NCBI GenBank assembly: GCA_025353765.1
Contig: JANXOD010000016.1
Location: forward strand, 248,001-312,000
DNA from: Sphingobacteriales bacterium
GTDB taxonomy: Bacteria > Bacteroidota > Bacteroidia > Sphingobacteriales > Sphingobacteriaceae
Reading direction: 5' to 3'
Length of the DNA stretch: 64,000 bases
The notes under the pieces are model-generated. The model worked only from the letters and a program-made list of their open reading frames with translations, was not told where the DNA came from and made no database searches. Both the position numbers and the translations under genes were made by a program. This document shows positions 9,621-61,649 of this stretch, piece by piece. How positions within the stretch are numbered: the stretch's first letter is position 1; the number at the start of each line of letters is the position of its first letter.

Positions 9621-11072
9621 ATGAAAATTTATCCTTACCTATTAACAGCACTTATTATATGTTCTATTTCCTGCAGAAAAGATGCAGCTCTTAAACCAGA
9701 GCAGCCTGCTGATCCTTATTTATTACAACAGGCCAAAGACTGGTATAGTAATCAACAAAAGCTATCTGCCGCCCCGGGGGCTGTAGACTTGAAAGCTTAT
9801 ACTCCCGATTGGAGCAAAGCCAACATAGTTAAAAACAGTAAAGGACAAAACATCCTCGGACTTTCCTTATTCCGTTCTCCGCAAGTATATATGGAGCTGA
9901 ATGTGGTTATTGCTAATGGTAAACCCTTTGGCATATTCAAAAAATATGTAGAGACTAAGGATAAAAAAGACCAATTAAACATTTATAGTGGAAATGGTCA
10001 ATTAATTACACGGGCTAATTACAATCGGCAAAACCACTTATTAACATCAATTGACCCTCCCGGAATGAAAGTGATGAAAGAGAAGGAACAAGAGCCTGTA
10101 CCTGCACCAGGCGAGGAACCAGGCAGTGGTGGCGGGGGTGGAACAGATCCTGGGCCCGGCCCTATTGGTTTTAGTTATCAGGGGGCGGAAATAACGATTA
10201 CCATTCCTGCAGATCCTCCCGGCTACCAGGGTCCTTCTCCTTCCTTTGGTGGTGGTGGTTTTGACATTCCTTTTCCTTCTTTTCCAATTGGTGGTGGGGG
10301 AGATCCCTATTCTGATTTTCCGCATGGTGGCGGAGGTGGTGGGAATTATAATCCTGCGCCGGTACCTGTAATACCAACTTCGCCTACACCGCCACCCATT
10401 AAAGATAGTATTGATGCGCAATTTGAATGTGCTAAAGAACTATTAGCCATGCTACCTACTTTAAAGAGTGATATTGCAAAAATAGTATACAATACTTTTA
10501 ATAGTCAATCGGCTTATACATTAACTTTTATTAATGGGGAAACAAATTATTTCTTAGCCAATCCTAATACAGATGGATATACAGAGCATATAAGTCCAAC
10601 TGAATCAAAAATAGCATTAAATCCTAACGTACTAAATAATGCCAGCAACGAGTATATTTTAGCAACAATGTATCACGAAGCTTTACATGGGTTCCTGTTT
10701 GCAGAATTTACTAAGTTAGGAGAAGTGTCATTTAAACTAAAATACCCGGATATTTCCATTAAACCAAGTGCAGATCAAACCTGGACTCCTAATCCTCAAC
10801 CTAATTTTTCTATCGATGAAGGAAGCTATTTTACTCCTATTGTTGATAATGACCCTCAGCATCGTACAATGGCTGTTTATTTTACAACCGAACTTAAGAA
10901 TGCTATTTTAGCATACAACCCTAATTTTCCGCCAGATAGGGCAATGGCTTTAGCCCGAGGAGGAATATTTAATGATGCTGTGATTTCAACTTCTGATATT
11001 AATGTATATTATAATAGTGCCGAACGTGACCGAACTAAGGGAAATGCTGTCGGTAAAACATGTACTCCGTAA
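9621..11072 (+). CDS. Lipoprotein with variable HExxH C-terminal domain (candidate polymorphic toxin 1)
   Basis: 483 aa. A signal peptide with lipobox-like CSISC (Cys18) predicts export and lipidation. Residues 19-145 form a domain shared with the protein at 60255-61649 (YTPDWSKA, IVKNSKG, LNV, DKK, GQLIT). Residues 155-262 are a Gly/Pro-rich linker with long Gly runs. Residues 265-483 are a different C-terminal domain with YHEALHGF (His352, Glu353, His356), a zincin-type HExxH motif, ending in a Cys near the terminus. Conserved export half plus low-complexity linker plus swapped enzymatic tip is polymorphic-toxin architecture. A secreted protein gene follows 11 bp later. Toxicity is inference; an ordinary surface protease is the alternative. 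Confidence 0.65.
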   Translation: MKIYPYLLTALIICSISCRKDAALKPEQPADPYLLQQAKDWYSNQQKLSAAPGAVDLKAYTPDWSKANIVKNSKGQNILGLSLFRSPQVYMELNVVIANGKPFGIFKKYVETKDKKDQLNIYSGNGQLITRANYNRQNHLLTSIDPPGMKVMKEKEQEPVPAPGEEPGSGGGGGTDPGPGPIGFSYQGAEITITIPADPPGYQGPSPSFGGGGFDIPFPSFPIGGGGDPYSDFPHGGGGGGNYNPAPVPVIPTSPTPPPIKDSIDAQFECAKELLAMLPTLKSDIAKIVYNTFNSQSAYTLTFINGETNYFLANPNTDGYTEHISPTESKIALNPNVLNNASNEYILATMYHEALHGFLFAEFTKLGEVSFKLKYPDISIKPSADQTWTPNPQPNFSIDEGSYFTPIVDNDPQHRTMAVYFTTELKNAILAYNPNFPPDRAMALARGGIFNDAVISTSDINVYYNSAERDRTKGNAVGKTCTP

Positions 11073-11083
11073 ATTTATTTGAT

Positions 11084-11737
11084 ATGAAGATATATTTTAG
11101 AATATTAATATTGAATTTTATTGTACTATTAATATTTAATTCAGCAGTAGCGCAAATACAGCTTAAATGTGGAGATTTCACCATTCCTATTCCAAAGTTT
11201 AAAGAGAGTCCGGTAGCTTCTTTCGACAATAAATATGCGGTTATTAGTCTTTTAAACCCGATCTATAAATCGAAGAATAAAGTAGAGATTAGAATATATT
11301 CCTATAGAGAGGGAAATATGAACTATATGGGGCAGGTCTATATCATTACCTGCGATAGTAACCGCTTGTGCGGCCAGCGTTTTAGTTATGCACCATGGGT
11401 GTTACATCCGGATTGGGAACCTACTATCCATGATGCTCCTCTTTCCGGAAATATAAAATCTATTCAGATAATAAAACTCAATCCTAAAAAAGACTGGGAG
11501 GGCGTATTTGAAACCTTGATAAAAAATGGTCTGTTTACTATTTCAACAAACCCAAATAGTATAAAAATTACTGAAACAAATCCGGGTTTAGATTGCTATG
11601 CCGTATTAGAGATCAAAATAAATAATCACTACCGGGTGGTTAAATTTAATTCTCGTTCTAAAAACAAAGTGAAAGAAGCGAAGGGTTTACAACGATTACT
11701 CCAAGTATTTTCGGATAATTTTGATATAGATAAATAG
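11084..11737 (+). CDS. Exported protein, candidate immunity protein for the HExxH lipoprotein
   Basis: 217 aa beginning with a signal peptide (MKIYFRILILNF, cleavage after SAVAQ), so it should be periplasmic. Five or so Cys residues are scattered in the mature part, and the C-terminal third has NNHYRVVKF. No family recognised. The start at 11084 follows the lipoprotein stop by 11 bp; an upstream in-frame ATG at 11060 would overlap that gene and spoil the signal peptide. The tight spacing and same compartment as the lipoprotein make a partner or immunity role likely, but no homology proves it. Confidence 0.6.
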   Translation: MKIYFRILILNFIVLLIFNSAVAQIQLKCGDFTIPIPKFKESPVASFDNKYAVISLLNPIYKSKNKVEIRIYSYREGNMNYMGQVYIITCDSNRLCGQRFSYAPWVLHPDWEPTIHDAPLSGNIKSIQIIKLNPKKDWEGVFETLIKNGLFTISTNPNSIKITETNPGLDCYAVLEIKINNHYRVVKFNSRSKNKVKEAKGLQRLLQVFSDNFDIDK

Positions 11738-12049
11738 GAATTTAGTGTTTTCCCGTTGATTGAGATTATGATGAGGAGCCAGTTTGATAACATGGTAAAT
11801 ATTTTAGCAACTTGGGATAACAATGCGCACAACATGAACGATTACCGAAGAACAATGTTATATGGGATGAACAATGTAGGAAATGATCCGCTTAATCAAC
11901 CTTCTCCTGAACTAGTAGCTGCGGTAAATACGGCCTATAACAAAATTTTAACTGATTATGGATATACTACTGCTACTTTAGATACGTATTATTATGATCA
12001 GCTCCACGCTCCTTCTAATCAAAAAGTGCCAAGCATTGGATGTCCATGA
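11738..12049 (+). pseudogene. Displaced C-terminal tip of an HExxH lipoprotein (orphan cassette)
   Basis: The frame directly after the TAG of the preceding gene stays open for 103 codons with no good start (TTG at 11756 or ATG at 11768 are possible). The product (VFPLIEIMM, QFDNMVNILATWDNN, YRRTMLYGMNNVGNDPL, ending SIGCP) aligns loosely with the last ~90 residues of the lipoprotein at 9621-11072 (YFTPIVDNDPQ, HRTMAVYFTTELKNA, DRAMALARGGIFNDAV, ending KTCTP). It lacks export signal, linker and HExxH. This is what remains when a new tip replaces an old one in a polymorphic locus. A short independent gene is less likely. Confidence 0.5.
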
Positions 12050-12091: not shown

Positions 12092-12721
12092 ATGAAAAAA
12101 CTAATTATATCTATACTTCTATTACTAACGTTTCAATTATCTTTTGGACAAGATTCACAACGGGATAGTAGTATAAACAGCTTTATTTTAAACCTAAAAA
12201 AAGATAAAGTTAAGACGGTTTGTTTATATAAAATGTATAGCGGAGGTGAGTACGTGCCCTCAAAAGCAGAAGATAGATGTGGTAGAGGGCGGATGATTCC
12301 TGTTTATATTTTCTGGTATAAACGCGGGAAAAGTTATATGACTAAAAGAGATAATTGCTTTGATTACGCCATTTATGAAATAAAGGATAATACCTTTTGG
12401 CATTTTTACTTTAAAAACCAGGATATTATAAAGAAGGAAAAAATTAAGCCCTTTGCGTGTAAAGTAATCGTAAAGGGAGTAGATACAACCGTAACCCCAC
12501 ATGTTGCTGATGGTTCTTCTGAAAGTATGACTTTTATAGACGAAACTGGTTCTCTAACTCAAATATTTAGCTTTGATTATGACCAGAAGCAAACATCTGA
12601 GATGATTAATGTGAATTTTGAGAATAATGTGAATTCAAAAACACATTATTTAAAGGGTTTAGTAGATTCATTAACTACAGAATTTTATAAGAATAAGGTA
12701 AGAAAAACCAGAAGGCCATAG
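12092..12721 (+). CDS. Exported protein, immunity-like, related to the gene at 59608-60249
   Basis: 209 aa with a clear signal peptide (MKKLIISILLLLTFQLSFGQ). The mature part is rich in Lys, Tyr and Phe. It shares weak but ordered similarity with the protein at 59608-60249: the centre (DGSSESMTF against DGGTSHIFE) and the C-terminus (LKGLVDSLTTEF against LKGFVNT then LTELVEQTF). In the second locus that protein directly follows the paralogous lipoprotein. This supports one family of periplasmic partner proteins. No named family recognised. It probably belonged to the toxin variant whose tip now remains at 11738-12049. Confidence 0.6.
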   Translation: MKKLIISILLLLTFQLSFGQDSQRDSSINSFILNLKKDKVKTVCLYKMYSGGEYVPSKAEDRCGRGRMIPVYIFWYKRGKSYMTKRDNCFDYAIYEIKDNTFWHFYFKNQDIIKKEKIKPFACKVIVKGVDTTVTPHVADGSSESMTFIDETGSLTQIFSFDYDQKQTSEMINVNFENNVNSKTHYLKGLVDSLTTEFYKNKVRKTRRP

Positions 12722-12872: not shown

Positions 12873-13469
12873 ATGAAACATCTAAATAGAATTGCATTTG
12901 TAGTAATAGTTTTTTTTAACACAGTAGCTTATGCTCAAAACTTAGAAGATCCTTCTGAAGAGCAATTATTTTTGAATTGGTTTTTTCAAAATTACCAGCC
13001 GAATTTTAAGAATGATCCCTTGATATTATATACAGATGCTATACATACAGGAAGTTTAAAATCAATAAAAGAAAGCTTTAGCCGAGATACATTAAGAAGT
13101 TTGAGAAATGGATTGAAAGAGCTTTTAGTTCTAACAACTTCTGAGAAGTTATACATAAATAATCAATTGGATAAAATGACGGGAAGGATATGGCATGAAA
13201 ATTTATTAAAAAATTCGCAGATGATTAGCCTGGATAGCATACAAACCTTTTTTGAAAAACAAGGTCCTGGCTGGACTGGATATTATAAAAAATATACTAC
13301 CGGATTTTACAGTTTTTCAAAACCAATTTTTCTCAGAAATAACACGATATGTATATTTGATTATAGCTATTATTGTGGCTCACTCTGTGCTAACGGCGAA
13401 ACAGGAGTTTATTTTAAGCATAACGGAAAATGGAGTAAATGGCTAACAATTAGTACGTGGATAAGTTAA
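12873..13469 (+). CDS. Exported hypothetical protein at end of locus 1
   Basis: 198 aa, signal peptide MKHLNRIAFVVIVFFNTVAY with cleavage near YAQ. The N-terminal leader nearly matches that of the protein at 59608-60249 (MKHLNKIVFLFVLFLSTKAY), but the mature domains differ. The mature part (IHTGSLKSIKESFSRD, then SYYCGSLCANGETGVYFK and NGKWSKW) looks like a small alpha+beta secreted domain with three Cys near the C-terminus. Not recognised. Position in a row of exported genes behind the HExxH lipoprotein suggests another partner or immunity gene. Confidence 0.55.
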   Translation: MKHLNRIAFVVIVFFNTVAYAQNLEDPSEEQLFLNWFFQNYQPNFKNDPLILYTDAIHTGSLKSIKESFSRDTLRSLRNGLKELLVLTTSEKLYINNQLDKMTGRIWHENLLKNSQMISLDSIQTFFEKQGPGWTGYYKKYTTGFYSFSKPIFLRNNTICIFDYSYYCGSLCANGETGVYFKHNGKWSKWLTISTWIS

Positions 13470-54294: not shown

Positions 54295-54376
54295 ACCGGA
54301 AGTCCAATCTCTTTTTATTTGTATGTTGGATAGGTTTCGCAGAGTGTGGCGAAGTTTAAGAGCTTTCGCTTTCTAA

Positions 54377-54607
54377 GTTGCAACGCTAGTTTTCTAAGTT
54401 GCAAGAGGAGTTTTCCTTTTCACATTGCTAGTTTTCTTTCTTACAATGGGAGTTTCTTAAGTTGCAACGCTGGTTTTCTTTCTCACATTGCTAGTTTTCT
54501 AAGTTACAATTCGAGTTTTCTTTTTCACAACGTGAGTTTTTAAAGTTGCATTGCTAGCTTTCTTTCTTGCAAGGGGAGTTTTCCTTTTCACAATGTGGCT
54601 TTTCTAA
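54377..54607. repeat. Degenerate 21-bp tandem repeat, array C (11 units)
   Basis: Eleven units of exactly 21 bp start at 54377 (GTTGCAACGCTAGTTTTCTA), with a weaker unit before. Core features are TTGCAA or TCACAT at the left and AGTTTTCT in the middle. Plus-frame reading gives a heptad (SFLSCNA, SFLSCKR, SFPFHIA, SFLSYNG and so on) up to a TAA in the eighth unit; synonymous changes are frequent. No start, so it is not called a gene. It fills most of the nadB-DUF559 gap. Confidence 0.85.
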
Positions 54608-54641
54608 TTTTTGGGTTGGGAGCGTTCATTAAGCAAAAAAT

Positions 54642-56097: not shown

Positions 56098-58377
56098 TTA
56101 TTTCTTTACTAGCCAATCATAGATCTCTTCTATGAAGGACAATTCTTCACTAGTAACATAATACGTATGATAGTTCTCATTGCGTATTCTATTTAATTCA
56201 ACCATCCATTTAGTTTTAGCGTCTTTACCACCAGAGATCTTTTCTTCATTTGGTCTGGTATAAGAAATCTCAAACATTTTTTGCCAATTTTTAAGTATTA
56301 TTTCTCTATAATCTATTAAATGAAGTTGATCCCAAGGCTCCTTTTCCTCATTCTCATCTTCAATTTCCCGGTTTTTCTTTGCTGCTAATGCAATAGCATC
56401 CGAGTAAATCTTTTCAGGTAATCCTTTTTTAAACCAGCTCTTACCAAATTCATCTTCTAGTTTTTGTTTTATATTAACCTTCAAATTAGAATTCTCTATT
56501 TCTCTTATATATTTAAAGGCAGTTTCATTATTTTCTTTTTCCTCCTTTTTTAGATATTCATCCAGTCCTTCAAAATGAATATCTGAATGGTCTTTTCTTA
56601 AGGCTATTTGCAAAGTTCTCCAGTACTTTGCATTTCCAGGAGTACCATAAGCTTTTTTCAACTCATTAGTTTTTTCTTCATCAAGTTCTTTATAAAAATG
56701 AAGTATAGTATCTAAATATGTCTTTGTCTCCCCAAAAATTTCTTTTATAGGAGTGGAAGCAGTGATTATTTTTTGAGATAGTAAATGATTAACAATATCA
56801 TTTAGCAACATAGTTATACCATAAAAACCCTTATTAATAAGTATTATATTGCCCTCACTTTCCCATATTTCTTCAAGGCTTTCTTTTATGAAATTGAAAC
56901 ATCTGATTAAATATTCTGAAATATTTTCATATGCTTTTTGAAGATCTCCTGTATAAAATGTGCCTAATTTTTCAATCTCTTTTGCCTTTACCTTACCTAA
57001 AAAATCGCTCTTGCTTAAAGTTATACCAATTTGTTCCATCGAAATGAGTTTCGAGTCTTCACCTATTGTTATTTTATCGTATAAGGGCGAATTTCGTGTT
57101 TCGCCTAAATGAATAGCTATTCTAGATTTAAGCGCTTTTATTTGATTTAAATAGCTATCTGAATCCCACAATAAATCAGCATCTAACGTATTTCTTAAAT
57201 CCTTAGATACCGGCTTTTGATTCTTATTGATTTGCATAAATAGCCTAACTTGTTCCGACCTATCTAAATTTACTAATGCGACTACAGGAATTGTATTTGT
57301 TGATTTATATTGAGAATTTGAATAACCATATAATCTATGTTGACCATCAATTATATACGCTGACCTATATTTCTTTGGAAGATGTAGTATACCAATACGT
57401 GAAATAGCATCTGGGACTTGAGTCTCACTCCTTTCAAAAACCAAATCTTTGTTTTTATCTGATACTATGTTAATGATTACTGAATTAGGAAAATATCCCT
57501 TTTCATCATCTATAAAGGAATGTATTTCCTTTAATCTATTTTTTTTAATTAATCTTTGATAGGTAGGCATCATATTTTCATTTGCCTTATTTCGATGAAG
57601 AACATATCCAATTTTTAATAATTTTTCAGGTTCGATTGAAAAAGAATAATAGGTATGCCCACCCATCTTACCTTTAATAGCAGGTGTTCTGTTTTCTAAA
57701 TCTGGAATTTCTTGGCCTGCAAAGAGGGCTCCTAAAAGTTGATATCTTGCAGCGATCCCAATCTGTGATTGTAAAGAATAATAATAGTCAATAACTTCTT
57801 CAGAAAAGTGGATTCCATCAATATTAGCAAGCCTAGACTCATCAGTAGAAGAAAGCCCTAGGTTTCTAGTTGCGAGAATATATTTAAATTTAGGTTTGGT
57901 TGATGGAAATAAAGCTGAAATAGTATTAATTATACCGCTTTTCTTGCTTTTCATGGCTTCAAGTTCCTTGTTAAAATCACCCAGTTTATTCTTGATAGAT
58001 GATTTACATTCAATAATTAGAACTGTTTCATCGTCTTTAGCAAATACATCAATTTGCTGTGTCAATGAGAAGTTATTTTTATCATAAGGCAGATGTAAAT
58101 ATCTATCCTTATTCATTAGTTTAAACCCAAGCTGTGCAAATAATGACCATACTTTATCTTCAAAAGCAATATCATCAGATTTTTTTCTAAGTATTTTTGT
58201 TGTCGTCTTCAGGATGGTGTCTACCTCCCACCCATCGAGAAGTTTTTCTTCTAATGCACTCGAACCATTATTATAACTTTCTTTATAAAATTCCGATTTT
58301 CGAGTTCTAAGACTTTTTTGAATTTCATTCCCTGGAATTAACTTACTGAGAAGGGTGACTTTTTGATCTTCTGTCAT
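56098..58377 (-). CDS. DGQHR-domain protein with N-terminal PD-(D/E)XK nuclease domain
   Basis: 759 aa. Residues about 70-130 look like a restriction-endonuclease fold: helix FEDKVWSLFAQLGF, then QQIDVF (Asp110) and VLIIECKSS (Glu123, Lys125). Residues about 260-450 form a DGQHR domain, as in DndB: QRLIKKNRLKEIHSFI, ISRIGILHL, DGQHR at 344-348, VNLDRSEQVRLFMQINKNQKPVS. The C-terminal 250 residues are unassigned and helical. DGQHR proteins appear in phosphorothioate modification (DndB) and in defence islands. The start overlaps the Dam gene stop by 4 nt. A restriction-like partner of that methylase is the best reading, but is inference. Confidence 0.75.
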   Translation of the reverse strand: MTEDQKVTLLSKLIPGNEIQKSLRTRKSEFYKESYNNGSSALEEKLLDGWEVDTILKTTTKILRKKSDDIAFEDKVWSLFAQLGFKLMNKDRYLHLPYDKNNFSLTQQIDVFAKDDETVLIIECKSSIKNKLGDFNKELEAMKSKKSGIINTISALFPSTKPKFKYILATRNLGLSSTDESRLANIDGIHFSEEVIDYYYSLQSQIGIAARYQLLGALFAGQEIPDLENRTPAIKGKMGGHTYYSFSIEPEKLLKIGYVLHRNKANENMMPTYQRLIKKNRLKEIHSFIDDEKGYFPNSVIINIVSDKNKDLVFERSETQVPDAISRIGILHLPKKYRSAYIIDGQHRLYGYSNSQYKSTNTIPVVALVNLDRSEQVRLFMQINKNQKPVSKDLRNTLDADLLWDSDSYLNQIKALKSRIAIHLGETRNSPLYDKITIGEDSKLISMEQIGITLSKSDFLGKVKAKEIEKLGTFYTGDLQKAYENISEYLIRCFNFIKESLEEIWESEGNIILINKGFYGITMLLNDIVNHLLSQKIITASTPIKEIFGETKTYLDTILHFYKELDEEKTNELKKAYGTPGNAKYWRTLQIALRKDHSDIHFEGLDEYLKKEEKENNETAFKYIREIENSNLKVNIKQKLEDEFGKSWFKKGLPEKIYSDAIALAAKKNREIEDENEEKEPWDQLHLIDYREIILKNWQKMFEISYTRPNEEKISGGKDAKTKWMVELNRIRNENYHTYYVTSEELSFIEEIYDWLVKK

Positions 58378-59216
58378 AGATTAGTATTTGTAAAAACAAA
58401 CTCATTTGTTTGACCTCTTTCAGCATTCATACCGCCAATTAAACTCGCTCTCTCTAGTCTAATTTTTCGATCTCCCTTTTCAAAAATTTCTTCAATTGTA
58501 GTATGAGCCGCATTTGTTAATATATAAAATGCATCTTTTTCTCTAATCTCATCAATCATTGCACTTAGCCTAATTTGATCTTCTAAGGAAAATATTTTTT
58601 CATTATATTTTATAAAGCCATTATCATTATGAGAGACGGTATAAGGAGGATCAAGAAACACAAGATCTCCAGTATTTACATTTTCCAGAATATCATAAAA
58701 ATCACCTTTAAAAAGAGTTGTATCTTGTAATGATCTACTTGCTTTTATTAGAACATTTTCGTCAAGAAATTCTTTAGTTCTAAATCCATATGGCACATTG
58801 TAAACTCCTTTAAGATTTACTCTGTAAATCCCATTATACGAAGTTTGATTTAGGTAAATGAATTGTGCAGCTCGATCATGAATGCTTTCAAAATTCATGT
58901 TTCTTATTTTATAATAATCCTCCTCTGTATTATTAAAACTTTTAAGCTTTTTTATTATCGCATTTACATCATCTTTTATTGCCTGATATGTTTCAATTAG
59001 ATCACTATTTAAATCAGAAAGAAATGAATGGTTCTTTGGATTAAGATAAAAAAAAGTGGATCCCCCCCCCAGAAAGGCTTCATGATAATTATTGTAATTA
59101 GATTTCTTAATGTTATCAAGATATTTAATTAGCCAAGATTTTCCGCCTGCCCATCTTAAAAAAGGCTTTGCAACTTTACTTTCTGATGCATCTATTGTTT
59201 CTTTCATTTTTTGCAT
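58374..59216 (-). CDS. Dam-type (D12 class) DNA adenine methyltransferase
   Basis: 280 aa. D12 adenine-N6 methyltransferase: KPFLRWAGGKSWLI (residues 17-30), the SAM loop EAFLGGGSTFFY (48-53 is FLGGGS), acidic SDLNSDLIETYQAI, SYNGIYRVN, and catalytic FLDPPY (Asp189-Tyr192). The fold predicts methylation of adenine, commonly GATC in this class. The codons for FLGGGS contain a run of nine G, so expression could switch by slippage. First gene of the pair with the DGQHR protein (4-nt overlap). Confidence 0.9.
   Translation of the reverse strand: MQKMKETIDASESKVAKPFLRWAGGKSWLIKYLDNIKKSNYNNYHEAFLGGGSTFFYLNPKNHSFLSDLNSDLIETYQAIKDDVNAIIKKLKSFNNTEEDYYKIRNMNFESIHDRAAQFIYLNQTSYNGIYRVNLKGVYNVPYGFRTKEFLDENVLIKASRSLQDTTLFKGDFYDILENVNTGDLVFLDPPYTVSHNDNGFIKYNEKIFSLEDQIRLSAMIDEIREKDAFYILTNAAHTTIEEIFEKGDRKIRLERASLIGGMNAERGQTNEFVFTNTNL
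59062..59070. repeat. Poly-C/G tract (9 bases) inside the methylase gene
   Basis: C9 on the plus strand (G9 in the coding strand) encodes Gly-Gly-Gly of the SAM-binding loop. A gain or loss of one base would shift the frame within the first fifth of the protein. No other homopolymer G/C run of this length was noticed in the window's coding regions. Confidence 0.8.
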
Positions 59217-59607: not shown

Positions 59608-60249
59608 TTACCTAAGTCGGATAGGATCATCCTTAAATGTTTGCTCAACCAGCTCTGTTAGCTTATCATACGTATTAACAAAACCCTTAAGAATCCCATA
59701 TTCCTGATTAAAGGGGTAACACCTTTCTAAATAAAAAGATGGAGCATAGGTATCAATGCCTTTTTTAGAAGTCTTAGTGTGTTCAAATATATGCGAAGTA
59801 CCTCCATCTTTTATGGATTCATAATTAATTGTATCTCCTTTAATTGGGCAATATTCGGGCAGTTTATGGTAATCTTCTTTAGAAAATTTAAACGCTTCGG
59901 CGGATGCGATTTCCTTTAAATATGTTTTTGCTTCTAACTCAGCAAGTTTTTTTTGATTAACCTTAAGTATGGGCTTTTTTGTGAAATAATCAATATTTAT
60001 TAAGCGAATCAAATAGTATTCCTGCCCTTTCTTAATAATGCCATAAAATCCATAATCAATGCTAATCCAATTAGAAGTTGAATAGGTCAATAGTGCATAA
60101 TCAATCTTATTTAGCTTTACGAATTTTTCAAGAGAGTCAACTTCAGGAACAAGAAATTTCCGAGTATCATTCCTTACGTCTATTTGGGTATATGCTTTTG
60201 TGCTAAGAAAAAGTACAAATAAGAATACTATTTTATTTAGATGTTTCAT
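59608..60249 (-). CDS. Exported protein, candidate immunity protein of locus 2
   Basis: 213 aa. Signal peptide MKHLNKIVFLFVLFLSTKAY with cleavage after YTQ. Mature part starts IDVRNDTRKFLV, has YCPIKGDTINYESIKDGGTS, YAPSFYLERCYPFN, and ends LTELVEQTFKDD. It resembles the exported protein at 12092-12721 in the middle and C-terminus, and its signal peptide resembles that of 12873-13469. It begins 5 bp after the stop of the lipoprotein gene, so it is its co-translated partner. Immunity is inferred from the arrangement. Confidence 0.6.
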   Translation of the reverse strand: MKHLNKIVFLFVLFLSTKAYTQIDVRNDTRKFLVPEVDSLEKFVKLNKIDYALLTYSTSNWISIDYGFYGIIKKGQEYYLIRLINIDYFTKKPILKVNQKKLAELEAKTYLKEIASAEAFKFSKEDYHKLPEYCPIKGDTINYESIKDGGTSHIFEHTKTSKKGIDTYAPSFYLERCYPFNQEYGILKGFVNTYDKLTELVEQTFKDDPIRLR

Positions 60250-60254
60250 CTTGA

Positions 60255-61649
60255 TTAATTACAAACTGGGTTGCCTAAACTTTTAGTGATATAGTCTCTG
60301 GAGATATCTTTCAATTCGTCTTTAGTCATACTTCCTCCAGGATAATCAAAATTAGTTGAGTTAATATAACTATTTGCATCAGCTAAACCACTCCATGCTA
60401 AAGCTGTTGCATCTTTTATTGGGATATTATACAGCCCCGAAAGAAAAGTAGCCATTGGCTGTACATAATTAGTTGCCATATCTTGATGTTCAATGACCTG
60501 CAATTTATTTTGTCCCGTGTAAGCAAAATAAGAATGAATTACTTCATGAATTATAACAGTCGCTGAATTTTCTTTAGTACTTGGTAATAGAGTATTGGTA
60601 CTTATGCTTATGGTGCCGAAAAAGTTCCCACCTACAAAACCTGGTTGTGCATCAAATTTAGCAGCTACAGATTTGCCATTTTTATTAAATACATCCGGTG
60701 CATCCACTACACTAATTTGGACCTTAGTATTTTGATCTAACGCACTAATAATTTCACTTATTTTACCGGCTACATTAGAATTCTTTAGTGAGTTTACTAC
60801 TGCTTTCAAACAAGGGTCTTTAACCTCATTCTTAATATCAGCAGGTTTCGGTTCTGGCTTTTTAGGCTTTGGTGCAGCAGGTGCACCGCCTCCGCCATAT
60901 GACCAATGATGATGACTATCTTCATCTGGTTCAGGGCTATAATGACTACCAATAGGCTCTGAAGGAAAGTTATATGAAGGCCTATTATGATGAAACGGTT
61001 GACCTATCACCACCACCTCAGATAATGATCCACCATAGACTGTGGGGTCTCCACCAATAGGACCACTGTAGTCATTACTGCTACCACCGATGTAGCCACC
61101 ACCACCGCTGTCATTACCACGGGGTCCACTATCCTCACCCCGGAGACTACCATCCCAGGGTCGAGGCAGTGGGACTCTCGGTTTATCAGGGATTGACATT
61201 AATCTAAACGCAGAATAATTAGTAGAGGTCAATAGCCCCTTTTTCTCATCGTCAGCTCCGTTTGTAATTAATCTGCCAGAGCCATCATACATACTTAACC
61301 GACTTTTTTTATCTGTACCGAGGGTATACTGCTTAAGTATCCCAAGCGTTTGGCCATCCACAGTCATTACATTCAAGTCTATATACTCTTGTGATGAGCT
61401 AAGCAAAGTAAGCCCCAGTACATTTTCTCCTTTACTGTTTTTAACGATCTGGGCTTTGCTCCAATCGGGGGTATACCCGTTCACATTGGGAGTTCCAGAG
61501 CTAGCAGATGCTTGTTGAGTACGATACCAATTTTGGGCTTCTTGCAGTAAAATCGGATCGGCAGGTTGCTCTATTTTAAGCGGTGCATCTTTCCTACAGG
61601 AAATAGAAAATACAATAAGTGCTATTAATAGGTAGGGGTAAATTTTCAT
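60255..61649 (-). CDS. Lipoprotein with HExxH C-terminal domain (candidate polymorphic toxin 2)
   Basis: 464 aa, paralog of 9621-11072. Lipobox region SISCRKDAPLK (Cys18), shared N-terminal domain (residues 19-150: PADPILLQEAQNWY, YTPDWSKAQIVKNSKG, DKKSRL), then a Gly/Pro/Ser-rich linker containing LSEVVVIGQ (a motif common at plug-like or exported-toxin junctions), a His-rich patch and a Pro/Lys stretch. The C-terminal domain from residue 270 has IIHEVIHSYFAYTG (His368, Glu369, His372), a metallopeptidase-like HExxH, and a last Cys. The tip sequence differs from the first paralog, as in polymorphic toxins. Between 109-bp repeats. Confidence 0.65.
   Translation of the reverse strand: MKIYPYLLIALIVFSISCRKDAPLKIEQPADPILLQEAQNWYRTQQASASSGTPNVNGYTPDWSKAQIVKNSKGENVLGLTLLSSSQEYIDLNVMTVDGQTLGILKQYTLGTDKKSRLSMYDGSGRLITNGADDEKKGLLTSTNYSAFRLMSIPDKPRVPLPRPWDGSLRGEDSGPRGNDSGGGGYIGGSSNDYSGPIGGDPTVYGGSLSEVVVIGQPFHHNRPSYNFPSEPIGSHYSPEPDEDSHHHWSYGGGGAPAAPKPKKPEPKPADIKNEVKDPCLKAVVNSLKNSNVAGKISEIISALDQNTKVQISVVDAPDVFNKNGKSVAAKFDAQPGFVGGNFFGTISISTNTLLPSTKENSATVIIHEVIHSYFAYTGQNKLQVIEHQDMATNYVQPMATFLSGLYNIPIKDATALAWSGLADANSYINSTNFDYPGGSMTKDELKDISRDYITKSLGNPVCN

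What the first reader, a model, noticed from the sequence alone, without database searches (positions are those of the whole stretch)
60255..61649. Second copy of the same lipoprotein class 50 kb away with a different tip
The first 150 residues match the locus-1 protein (YTPDWSKA, IVKNSKG, DKK), the linker is of another composition (LSEVVVIGQ, His and Pro/Lys patches), and the HExxH is IIHEVIH in a different sequence context. Two members with fixed N-part and swapped tips in one window is direct evidence for modular evolution.
Basis: partly seen in the sequence, partly recalled or inferred. Interest (0 to 1): 0.75.

Follow-up and report, generated by a model that had tools for sequence, protein, structure and literature searches.

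The report
Lipoprotein with swappable protease tip
The gene encodes a membrane-anchored protein whose rear end, a predicted zinc protease, is exchanged between gene copies together with the small exported protein encoded next to it, which is the signature of a bacterial weapon carried with its own antidote.

Summary
Window 60255-61649 (-) encodes a 464-aa lipoprotein whose first 150 residues are 56% identical to the locus-1 protein (9621-11072, +), while the tips share 18-31%. The genome holds four such genes (A and B in the window, C and D on other contigs) plus a fifth tip on a short N-terminus. These copies settle modularity. B and C are 85-86% identical in N-part and linker, then at chance level in the tip. 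A and D match weakly before the tip, then closely through the tip and the next gene, and stop at its end. The exchanged unit is therefore tip plus downstream gene. Across 55 loci the downstream protein follows the tip: 102 of 414 pairs with like tips but unlike N-parts have like partners, against 0 of 172 with like N-parts but unlike tips. Relatives in Sphingobacteriaceae carry zincin, C39-like, JAB-like and unknown tips on one N-part. I read this as an uncatalogued lipoprotein-anchored polymorphic toxin/immunity family. Tips A and B are both remote selecase/SprT-like zincins, so 'different tip' means different clades of one peptidase superfamily. Toxicity, immunity, surface exposure and delivery are inferred.

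The parts
60255..61649 (-). Copy A: lipoprotein with zincin tip, 464 aa
   Evidence: relatives
61596..61649 (-). Signal peptide and lipobox, residues 1-18 (SISC-RKDA); Cys18 is the putative lipidated residue
   Evidence: sequence; Cys18 invariant and Lys20 nearly invariant in 18 N-parts
61245..61571 (-). Conserved N-domain, residues 27-135: one helix and six strands
   Evidence: AF2 model, pLDDT mostly 63-89; alignment A5
60885..61244 (-). Low-complexity linker (Gly/Pro/His), residues 136-255, predicted disordered
   Evidence: pLDDT under 50 for 137-255
60258..60842 (-). Variable tip, residues 270-464, predicted zincin metallopeptidase
   Evidence: homologous tip B model
60534..60548 (-). HEVIH, residues 368-372; third putative zinc ligand His388 at 60486-60488
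   Evidence: invariant H, E, H and downstream H in 12 diverse tips
59608..60249 (-). Putative immunity protein of A, 213 aa with signal peptide; starts 5 bp after A
   Evidence: 65% identical homolog behind copy D and nowhere else in the genome; co-inherited block
9621..11072 (+). Copy B: same N-part, different zincin tip, 483 aa; HEALH at 10674-10688
   Evidence: AF2 tip model pLDDT 84.5, pTM 0.85
11060..11737 (+). Putative immunity protein of B, 225 aa with signal peptide; overlaps the end of B by 13 bp
   Evidence: position and signal peptide
11765..12043 (+). Remnant: C-terminal half of an L060-type zincin tip, without HExxH (within ORF 11756-12049)
   Evidence: tblastn 36% over 92 aa, E 1e-11
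12092..12721 (+). Putative orphan immunity protein, 209 aa with signal peptide
   Evidence: position behind the tip remnant and signal peptide only
12873..13469 (+). Putative orphan immunity protein, 198 aa; signal peptide like that of the A immunity protein
   Evidence: 12 of 22 residues identical, E 8e-4

Best explanation
Copy A is one allele of a polymorphic toxin system of Bacteroidota whose delivery part is a lipoprotein. A constant module (lipobox, small helix-plus-sheet domain, long flexible linker) anchors the protein in the outer membrane and holds out an exchangeable C-terminal enzyme. Here the enzyme is a small zinc metallopeptidase of zincin fold. The gene directly downstream makes an exported protein that neutralises that tip in the producer and its kin. 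Tip and immunity gene move together by recombination at the linker, leaving old tip ends and spare immunity genes behind. Shown by sequence: constant N-part, tip exchange, co-travel of the downstream gene, remnants, intact HExxH and third His. Inferred: that the tip cleaves envelope proteins of neighbouring related cells on contact, that the downstream protein is its antidote acting in the periplasm, that the lipoprotein faces outward, and any delivery route.
For: DNA homology B-C runs from about -80 to codon ~254 and then falls to chance; A-D homology is strong from about codon 255 to the end of the downstream gene. Tip data reject an A+B+C+D clade (AU p 0.0006) and L050+L051 (p 0.003); N-part data reject B+L054 (p 0.003) and L049+L051 (p 0.025); no correlation of N and tip identity (Mantel p 0.84). 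Paralogs in one relative: 92-93% N-part plus linker, tips 21-28% (zincin, another zincin, C39-like). Partner follows tip: 102/414 against 0/172. Tip remnants and spare partner genes in this genome and in relatives. Exported partners fit an envelope target. Tip B model: top matches are zinc peptidases and the zincin-like YbeY.
Against: No toxicity, protease or neutralisation data. No match above cut-off to any catalogued toxin or immunity family. Most recognisable tips are peptidases, which also fits a secreted-protease-plus-inhibitor system. Copy D ends about ten residues early and L118 has HESIY in place of HExxH, so some copies may be dead. Fold matches stay at Z 7.3 or below. No delivery machinery was identified.
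Confidence: 0.75

Rival explanations
1. Secreted-protease-plus-inhibitor modules: surface proteases for nutrition or matrix processing, with a co-encoded exported inhibitor that protects the producer's own envelope, not aimed at other cells.
For: Recognisable tips are mostly peptidases (zincin, C39-like, JAB-like), and an exported inhibitor would also follow its protease.
Against: Does not explain rapid tip exchange on near-identical N-parts, orphan tips with spare partner genes, tandem extra partners (L126), or large tips with no recognisable peptidase signature (L043, L045/L052, L047).
Confidence: 0.13
2. Effectors aimed at eukaryotes (protists), like the Amoebophilus lipobox proteins APD1/APD2 with constant N-domains and varied C-termini.
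For: Same layout: lipobox, constant domain, varied enzymatic ends (PMC3482391).
Against: A tip-specific exported partner directly downstream would be needless; the named carriers are mostly genera known to me as free-living or plant- and soil-associated Bacteroidota.
Confidence: 0.06
3. One vertically inherited peptidase family in which the tip simply evolves fast.
For: Tips A-D share HExxH, a downstream His, a Gly and, except in truncated D, a C-terminal Cys.
Against: L051 shares its tip closely with a gene whose N-part is distant, and unrelated tips sit on 92-93% identical N-parts.
Confidence: 0.02

Closest known systems
[quoted passage not shown] 2012, PMC3482391)
   Same: Constant N-terminal trafficking part, exchanged C-terminal toxin domain, downstream immunity gene, standalone cassettes.
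   Different: The N-part here is a small lipoprotein domain not matched by any family model used; the partner genes are exported; the tips matched no Tox-MPTase model in the Pfam scan.
SitA lipoprotein toxins of myxobacteria (PMC5562445, PMC8546572)
   Same: Outer-membrane lipoproteins with polymorphic C-terminal toxins and a cognate immunity gene directly downstream.
   Different: SitA tips studied are nucleases active in the cytoplasm and are delivered by TraA/TraB outer membrane exchange; here recognisable tips are mostly peptidases, partners carry signal peptides, and no such exchange is known to me in Bacteroidota. Sequence relationship was not tested.
TANFOR polymorphic toxins of Bacteroidetes (PMC7073777)
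   Same: Same phylum, constant N-terminal domain, varied C-terminal toxin, downstream immunity.
   Different: TANFOR proteins are described as large (one has its toxin domain at residues 1542-1841) and are proposed type IX substrates; that paper's text has no mention of lipoproteins or metallopeptidases.
Amoebophilus APD1/APD2 effectors (PMC3482391, section 37)
   Same: Signal peptide plus lipobox plus constant domain plus diverse C-termini, in the same phylum.
   Different: Proposed to act on a eukaryotic host, deployed in parallel, not by serial cassette exchange.
Selecase / SprT / Wss1-type minimal zincins
   Same: Predicted fold and zinc motif: VIA-align Z 7.3 and 7.1 to selecase, 6.4 to Spartan.
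   Different: Sequence below every family cut-off (SprT-like 16.1 against 25.6 bits); exported and C-terminal in a lipoprotein.

Membership tests
Polymorphic toxin system | Constant N-part with exchanged C-terminal domains | tested here: met
Polymorphic toxin system | Downstream gene specific to the tip | tested here: met
   102/414 like-tip, unlike-N pairs against 0/172 like-N, unlike-tip pairs
Polymorphic toxin system | Orphan tip or immunity cassettes nearby | tested here: met
   window 11765-12043; L007 6476-6559 and its 171-aa partner of the B-tip type; L059, L052
Polymorphic toxin system | Tip is toxic and the partner neutralises it | not testable with these tools
   needs experiment
SitA lipoprotein toxins | Lipobox plus polymorphic C-terminus plus downstream partner | tested here: met
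SitA lipoprotein toxins | Delivery by TraA/TraB outer membrane exchange | not tested
   TraA/TraB were not searched for
SitA lipoprotein toxins | Overlapping sitB gene upstream (typical in M. xanthus) | tested here: not met
   no gene overlaps A upstream, and the genes upstream of A and B differ
TANFOR toxins | N-terminal TANFOR domain | tested here: inconclusive
   no NCBIfam family matched A or B, but I did not verify that the TANFOR model is in that library
Tox-MPTase toxin families | Match to a Tox-MPTase sequence model | tested here: inconclusive
   A and B matched none in Pfam at E up to 1; presence of all five models was not verified
SprT-like (PF10263) | Score over the curated cut-off | tested here: not met
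   14.2 and 16.1 bits against 25.6
Zincin metallopeptidases | HExxH plus a third ligand in a zincin fold | tested here: met
   motif; model of tip B aligns best with zincins, though at Z 7.3 or below
Bacteroidetes surface lipoproteins | Lipoprotein export signal K-(D/E)2 after the Cys (PMC5080379) | tested here: inconclusive
   most N-parts read C-x-K-(D/E); a full K-(D/E)2 occurs in L044, L048 and L053, but A has K-D-A

The most novel reading that the evidence does not exclude
Bacteroidota carry a contact weapon built on surface lipoproteins and independent of type VI secretion: a tethered, exchangeable protease that attacks the envelope of neighbours, with an exported antidote, and in many carriers a dedicated Wzy_C-type ligase next door that modifies the tethered protein.
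Probability: 0.3. Interest if true: 0.8.

Novelty: new variant of a known kind. Interest (0 to 1): 0.62.

Why it matters
It would add a lipoprotein-anchored, mostly protease-tipped branch to polymorphic toxins in a major environmental phylum, with tip and antidote families not found in Pfam, NCBIfam or PADLOC. The paralog sets with near-identical N-parts and different tips are ready-made natural experiments for testing specificity and delivery.

Tried and rejected
A first genome-contig scan with the four N-parts found nothing; the N-part is too variable for back-translated patterns, so the second scan used the tips. Plasmid and phage collections gave no match to A or B respectively. PDB sequence profiles gave only weak SprT/Wss1/selecase leads. 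Foldseek gave no match at E 0.001 or better for full-length A or tip B; its weak top rows for tip B are other zincin enzymes, which a common zinc site explains. The N-domain's weak beta-barrel Foldseek rows were not taken as evidence. A role of the Wzy_C ligase in the window's own genome was rejected: its closest homolog there scores only E 9e-6. The second conserved neighbour found beside some relatives (transglutaminase-like, L055) was not found in this genome either. Type VI delivery looks unlikely here: no VipB match.

Full report
What is there. The ORF at 60255-61649 (minus strand) encodes 464 residues: signal peptide with lipobox (Cys18), a conserved domain to about residue 135, a Gly/Pro/His-rich linker to about residue 255, and a C-terminal tip with HEVIH. 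The locus-1 protein at 9621-11072 is 56% identical over the first 150 residues (E 5e-52), 38% over the linker and 18-31% over the tip.

The rest of the genome. The window is contig C20:248001-312000 of a 2.83-Mb draft genome. Two more copies exist: C on C6 and D on C16. D stops about ten residues short of A, with homology continuing past the stop. A fifth tip (285 aa) sits on a short signal peptide on C6.

Proof of modularity. At the DNA level B and C are alike from about 80 bases before the start to codon ~254, then fall to chance for the tip and everything after. A and D behave the other way: weak similarity in the linker, strong again from codon ~255 through the tip and through the whole downstream gene, ending where that gene ends. 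Protein identities: N-part B-C 85%, linker B-C 86%, tip B-C 25%; A-D 52%, 39% and 73%. Over 12 zincin-tipped relatives N-part and tip identities are uncorrelated (Mantel p 0.84), and AU tests reject forcing one tree onto the other data: tips as an A+B+C+D clade p 0.0006; tips L050+L051 p 0.003; tips B+C p 0.042; N-parts B+L054 p 0.003; N-parts L049+L051 p 0.025; N-parts A+D were not rejected (p 0.13). The tested groups were chosen after seeing the trees, so these p-values lean low. L049 and L051, from two genomes, share 94% identical tips over 176 aa but 41% N-parts. In relative G322, a single-contig genome, copies L119, L121 and L122 have 92-93% identical N-part plus linker and tips of 21-28% identity: a zincin, a C39-like domain and another zincin. 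In relative G177, adjacent genes share 90% N-parts with unrelated tips.

The partner gene. Nearly every locus has, directly downstream on the same strand, a small protein, mostly with a signal peptide or lipobox (simple hydrophobicity rule). Over 55 loci, partners are similar in 123 of 478 pairs with similar tips, and in 1 of 1007 pairs without. Split by N-part: 102 of 414 pairs with unlike N-parts but like tips, and 0 of 172 pairs with like N-parts but unlike tips. Permuting partners gives a mean of 40 and a maximum of 93 against 123 observed. Pairs of loci are not independent, so I rely on the contrast, not on a p-value. In the window, A is followed after 5 bp by a 213-aa exported protein whose only homolog in the genome (65%) lies behind D.

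Orphans. Downstream of B lie the C-terminal half of another tip type (11765-12043) and two further exported proteins (12092-12721, 12873-13469). Downstream of D lie 28 residues of an A-type tip end and a 171-aa protein homologous to partners of B-type tips in Pedobacter. Relatives L059 and L052 show larger arrays of linker-plus-tip or tip-end fragments with extra partners; L126 has three tandem partner paralogs. Such leftovers are expected when cassettes replace one another.

What the tip is. Twelve diverse tips share H, E, H of HExxH, a downstream His, one Gly and a near-invariant C-terminal Cys. AlphaFold2 gives a confident model for tip B (pLDDT 84.5, pTM 0.85) and a moderate one for full-length A (62.6, linker disordered, tip 270-460 folded). 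VIA-align places selecase (Z 7.3), YbeY (7.1) and Spartan (6.4) on top, and sequence profiles point weakly the same way. Z below 8 can reflect a common arrangement only, so 'zincin' rests on fold plus motif together, and a particular peptidase family is not claimed.

How it probably works. The layout is that of a polymorphic toxin: constant carrier, exchangeable enzyme, tip-specific protein next door, orphan cassettes. Because the partners are exported, the target is probably in the envelope. The lipoproteins mostly start C-x-K-(D/E), close to but not fully the published surface export signal (PMC5080379). The genome has SprA of the type IX system and no VipB of type VI. None of these three points establishes a route. 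Toxicity and neutralisation are untested.

What is known. Closest in principle are polymorphic toxins in general (PMC3482391), myxobacterial SitA lipoprotein toxins (PMC5562445), TANFOR toxins of Bacteroidetes (PMC7073777) and the Amoebophilus lipobox effectors (PMC3482391). The searched literature did not show this family; subscription papers are mostly not held, so that is weak evidence of absence. Pfam, NCBIfam and PADLOC have no model over cut-off for the toxin or partner proteins submitted to each.

A side lead. In many relatives a Wzy_C (O-antigen-ligase-type) membrane protein lies next to the lipoprotein gene. The cases used to build the profile prove nothing further, but three new ones were found independently: G330, G351 and G232. 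The window's genome has no such neighbour, so it is not essential.

Noticed in passing
L042 7757-9517, L053 1775-3571 and others; G330, G351, G232: A distinct clade of Wzy_C ligase-type membrane proteins sits next to the lipoprotein toxin gene in many Sphingobacteriaceae, absent from the window's genome. It may modify the tethered protein.
   Followed up: partly
L043 2091-3725, L053 3543-4946, L055 146-2143, L056 7783-9759: A second conserved neighbour of 470-665 aa, lipoprotein or exported; the L055 member has a transglutaminase-like and an F5/8 type C domain. Not found in this genome.
   Followed up: partly
window 56098-59216 (-): Directly beyond the A partner: a D12-class adenine methyltransferase and a DndB/DpdB-like 759-aa protein with a weak HEPN match, possibly a defence module.
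   Followed up: no
L118 3183-4628 (+): A close relative of HExxH tips reads HESIY at the zinc site, possibly a dead copy kept with its partner.
   Followed up: no
L007 5488-5886 and 8533-8814: The D locus is flanked on both sides by copies of the same small gene (80% over 70 aa), as if the cassette had been inserted into or next to it.
   Followed up: no
L133 1354-2211 (-): Fifth zincin tip of the genome on a short signal peptide without the N-domain, followed by an exported 226-aa protein.
   Followed up: partly
window 54346-54630; L008 2293-2629: Short ORFs of near-perfect repeats of a simple motif (FLSCNASFLS..., STLTLAMSTLE...) at two loci.
   Followed up: no
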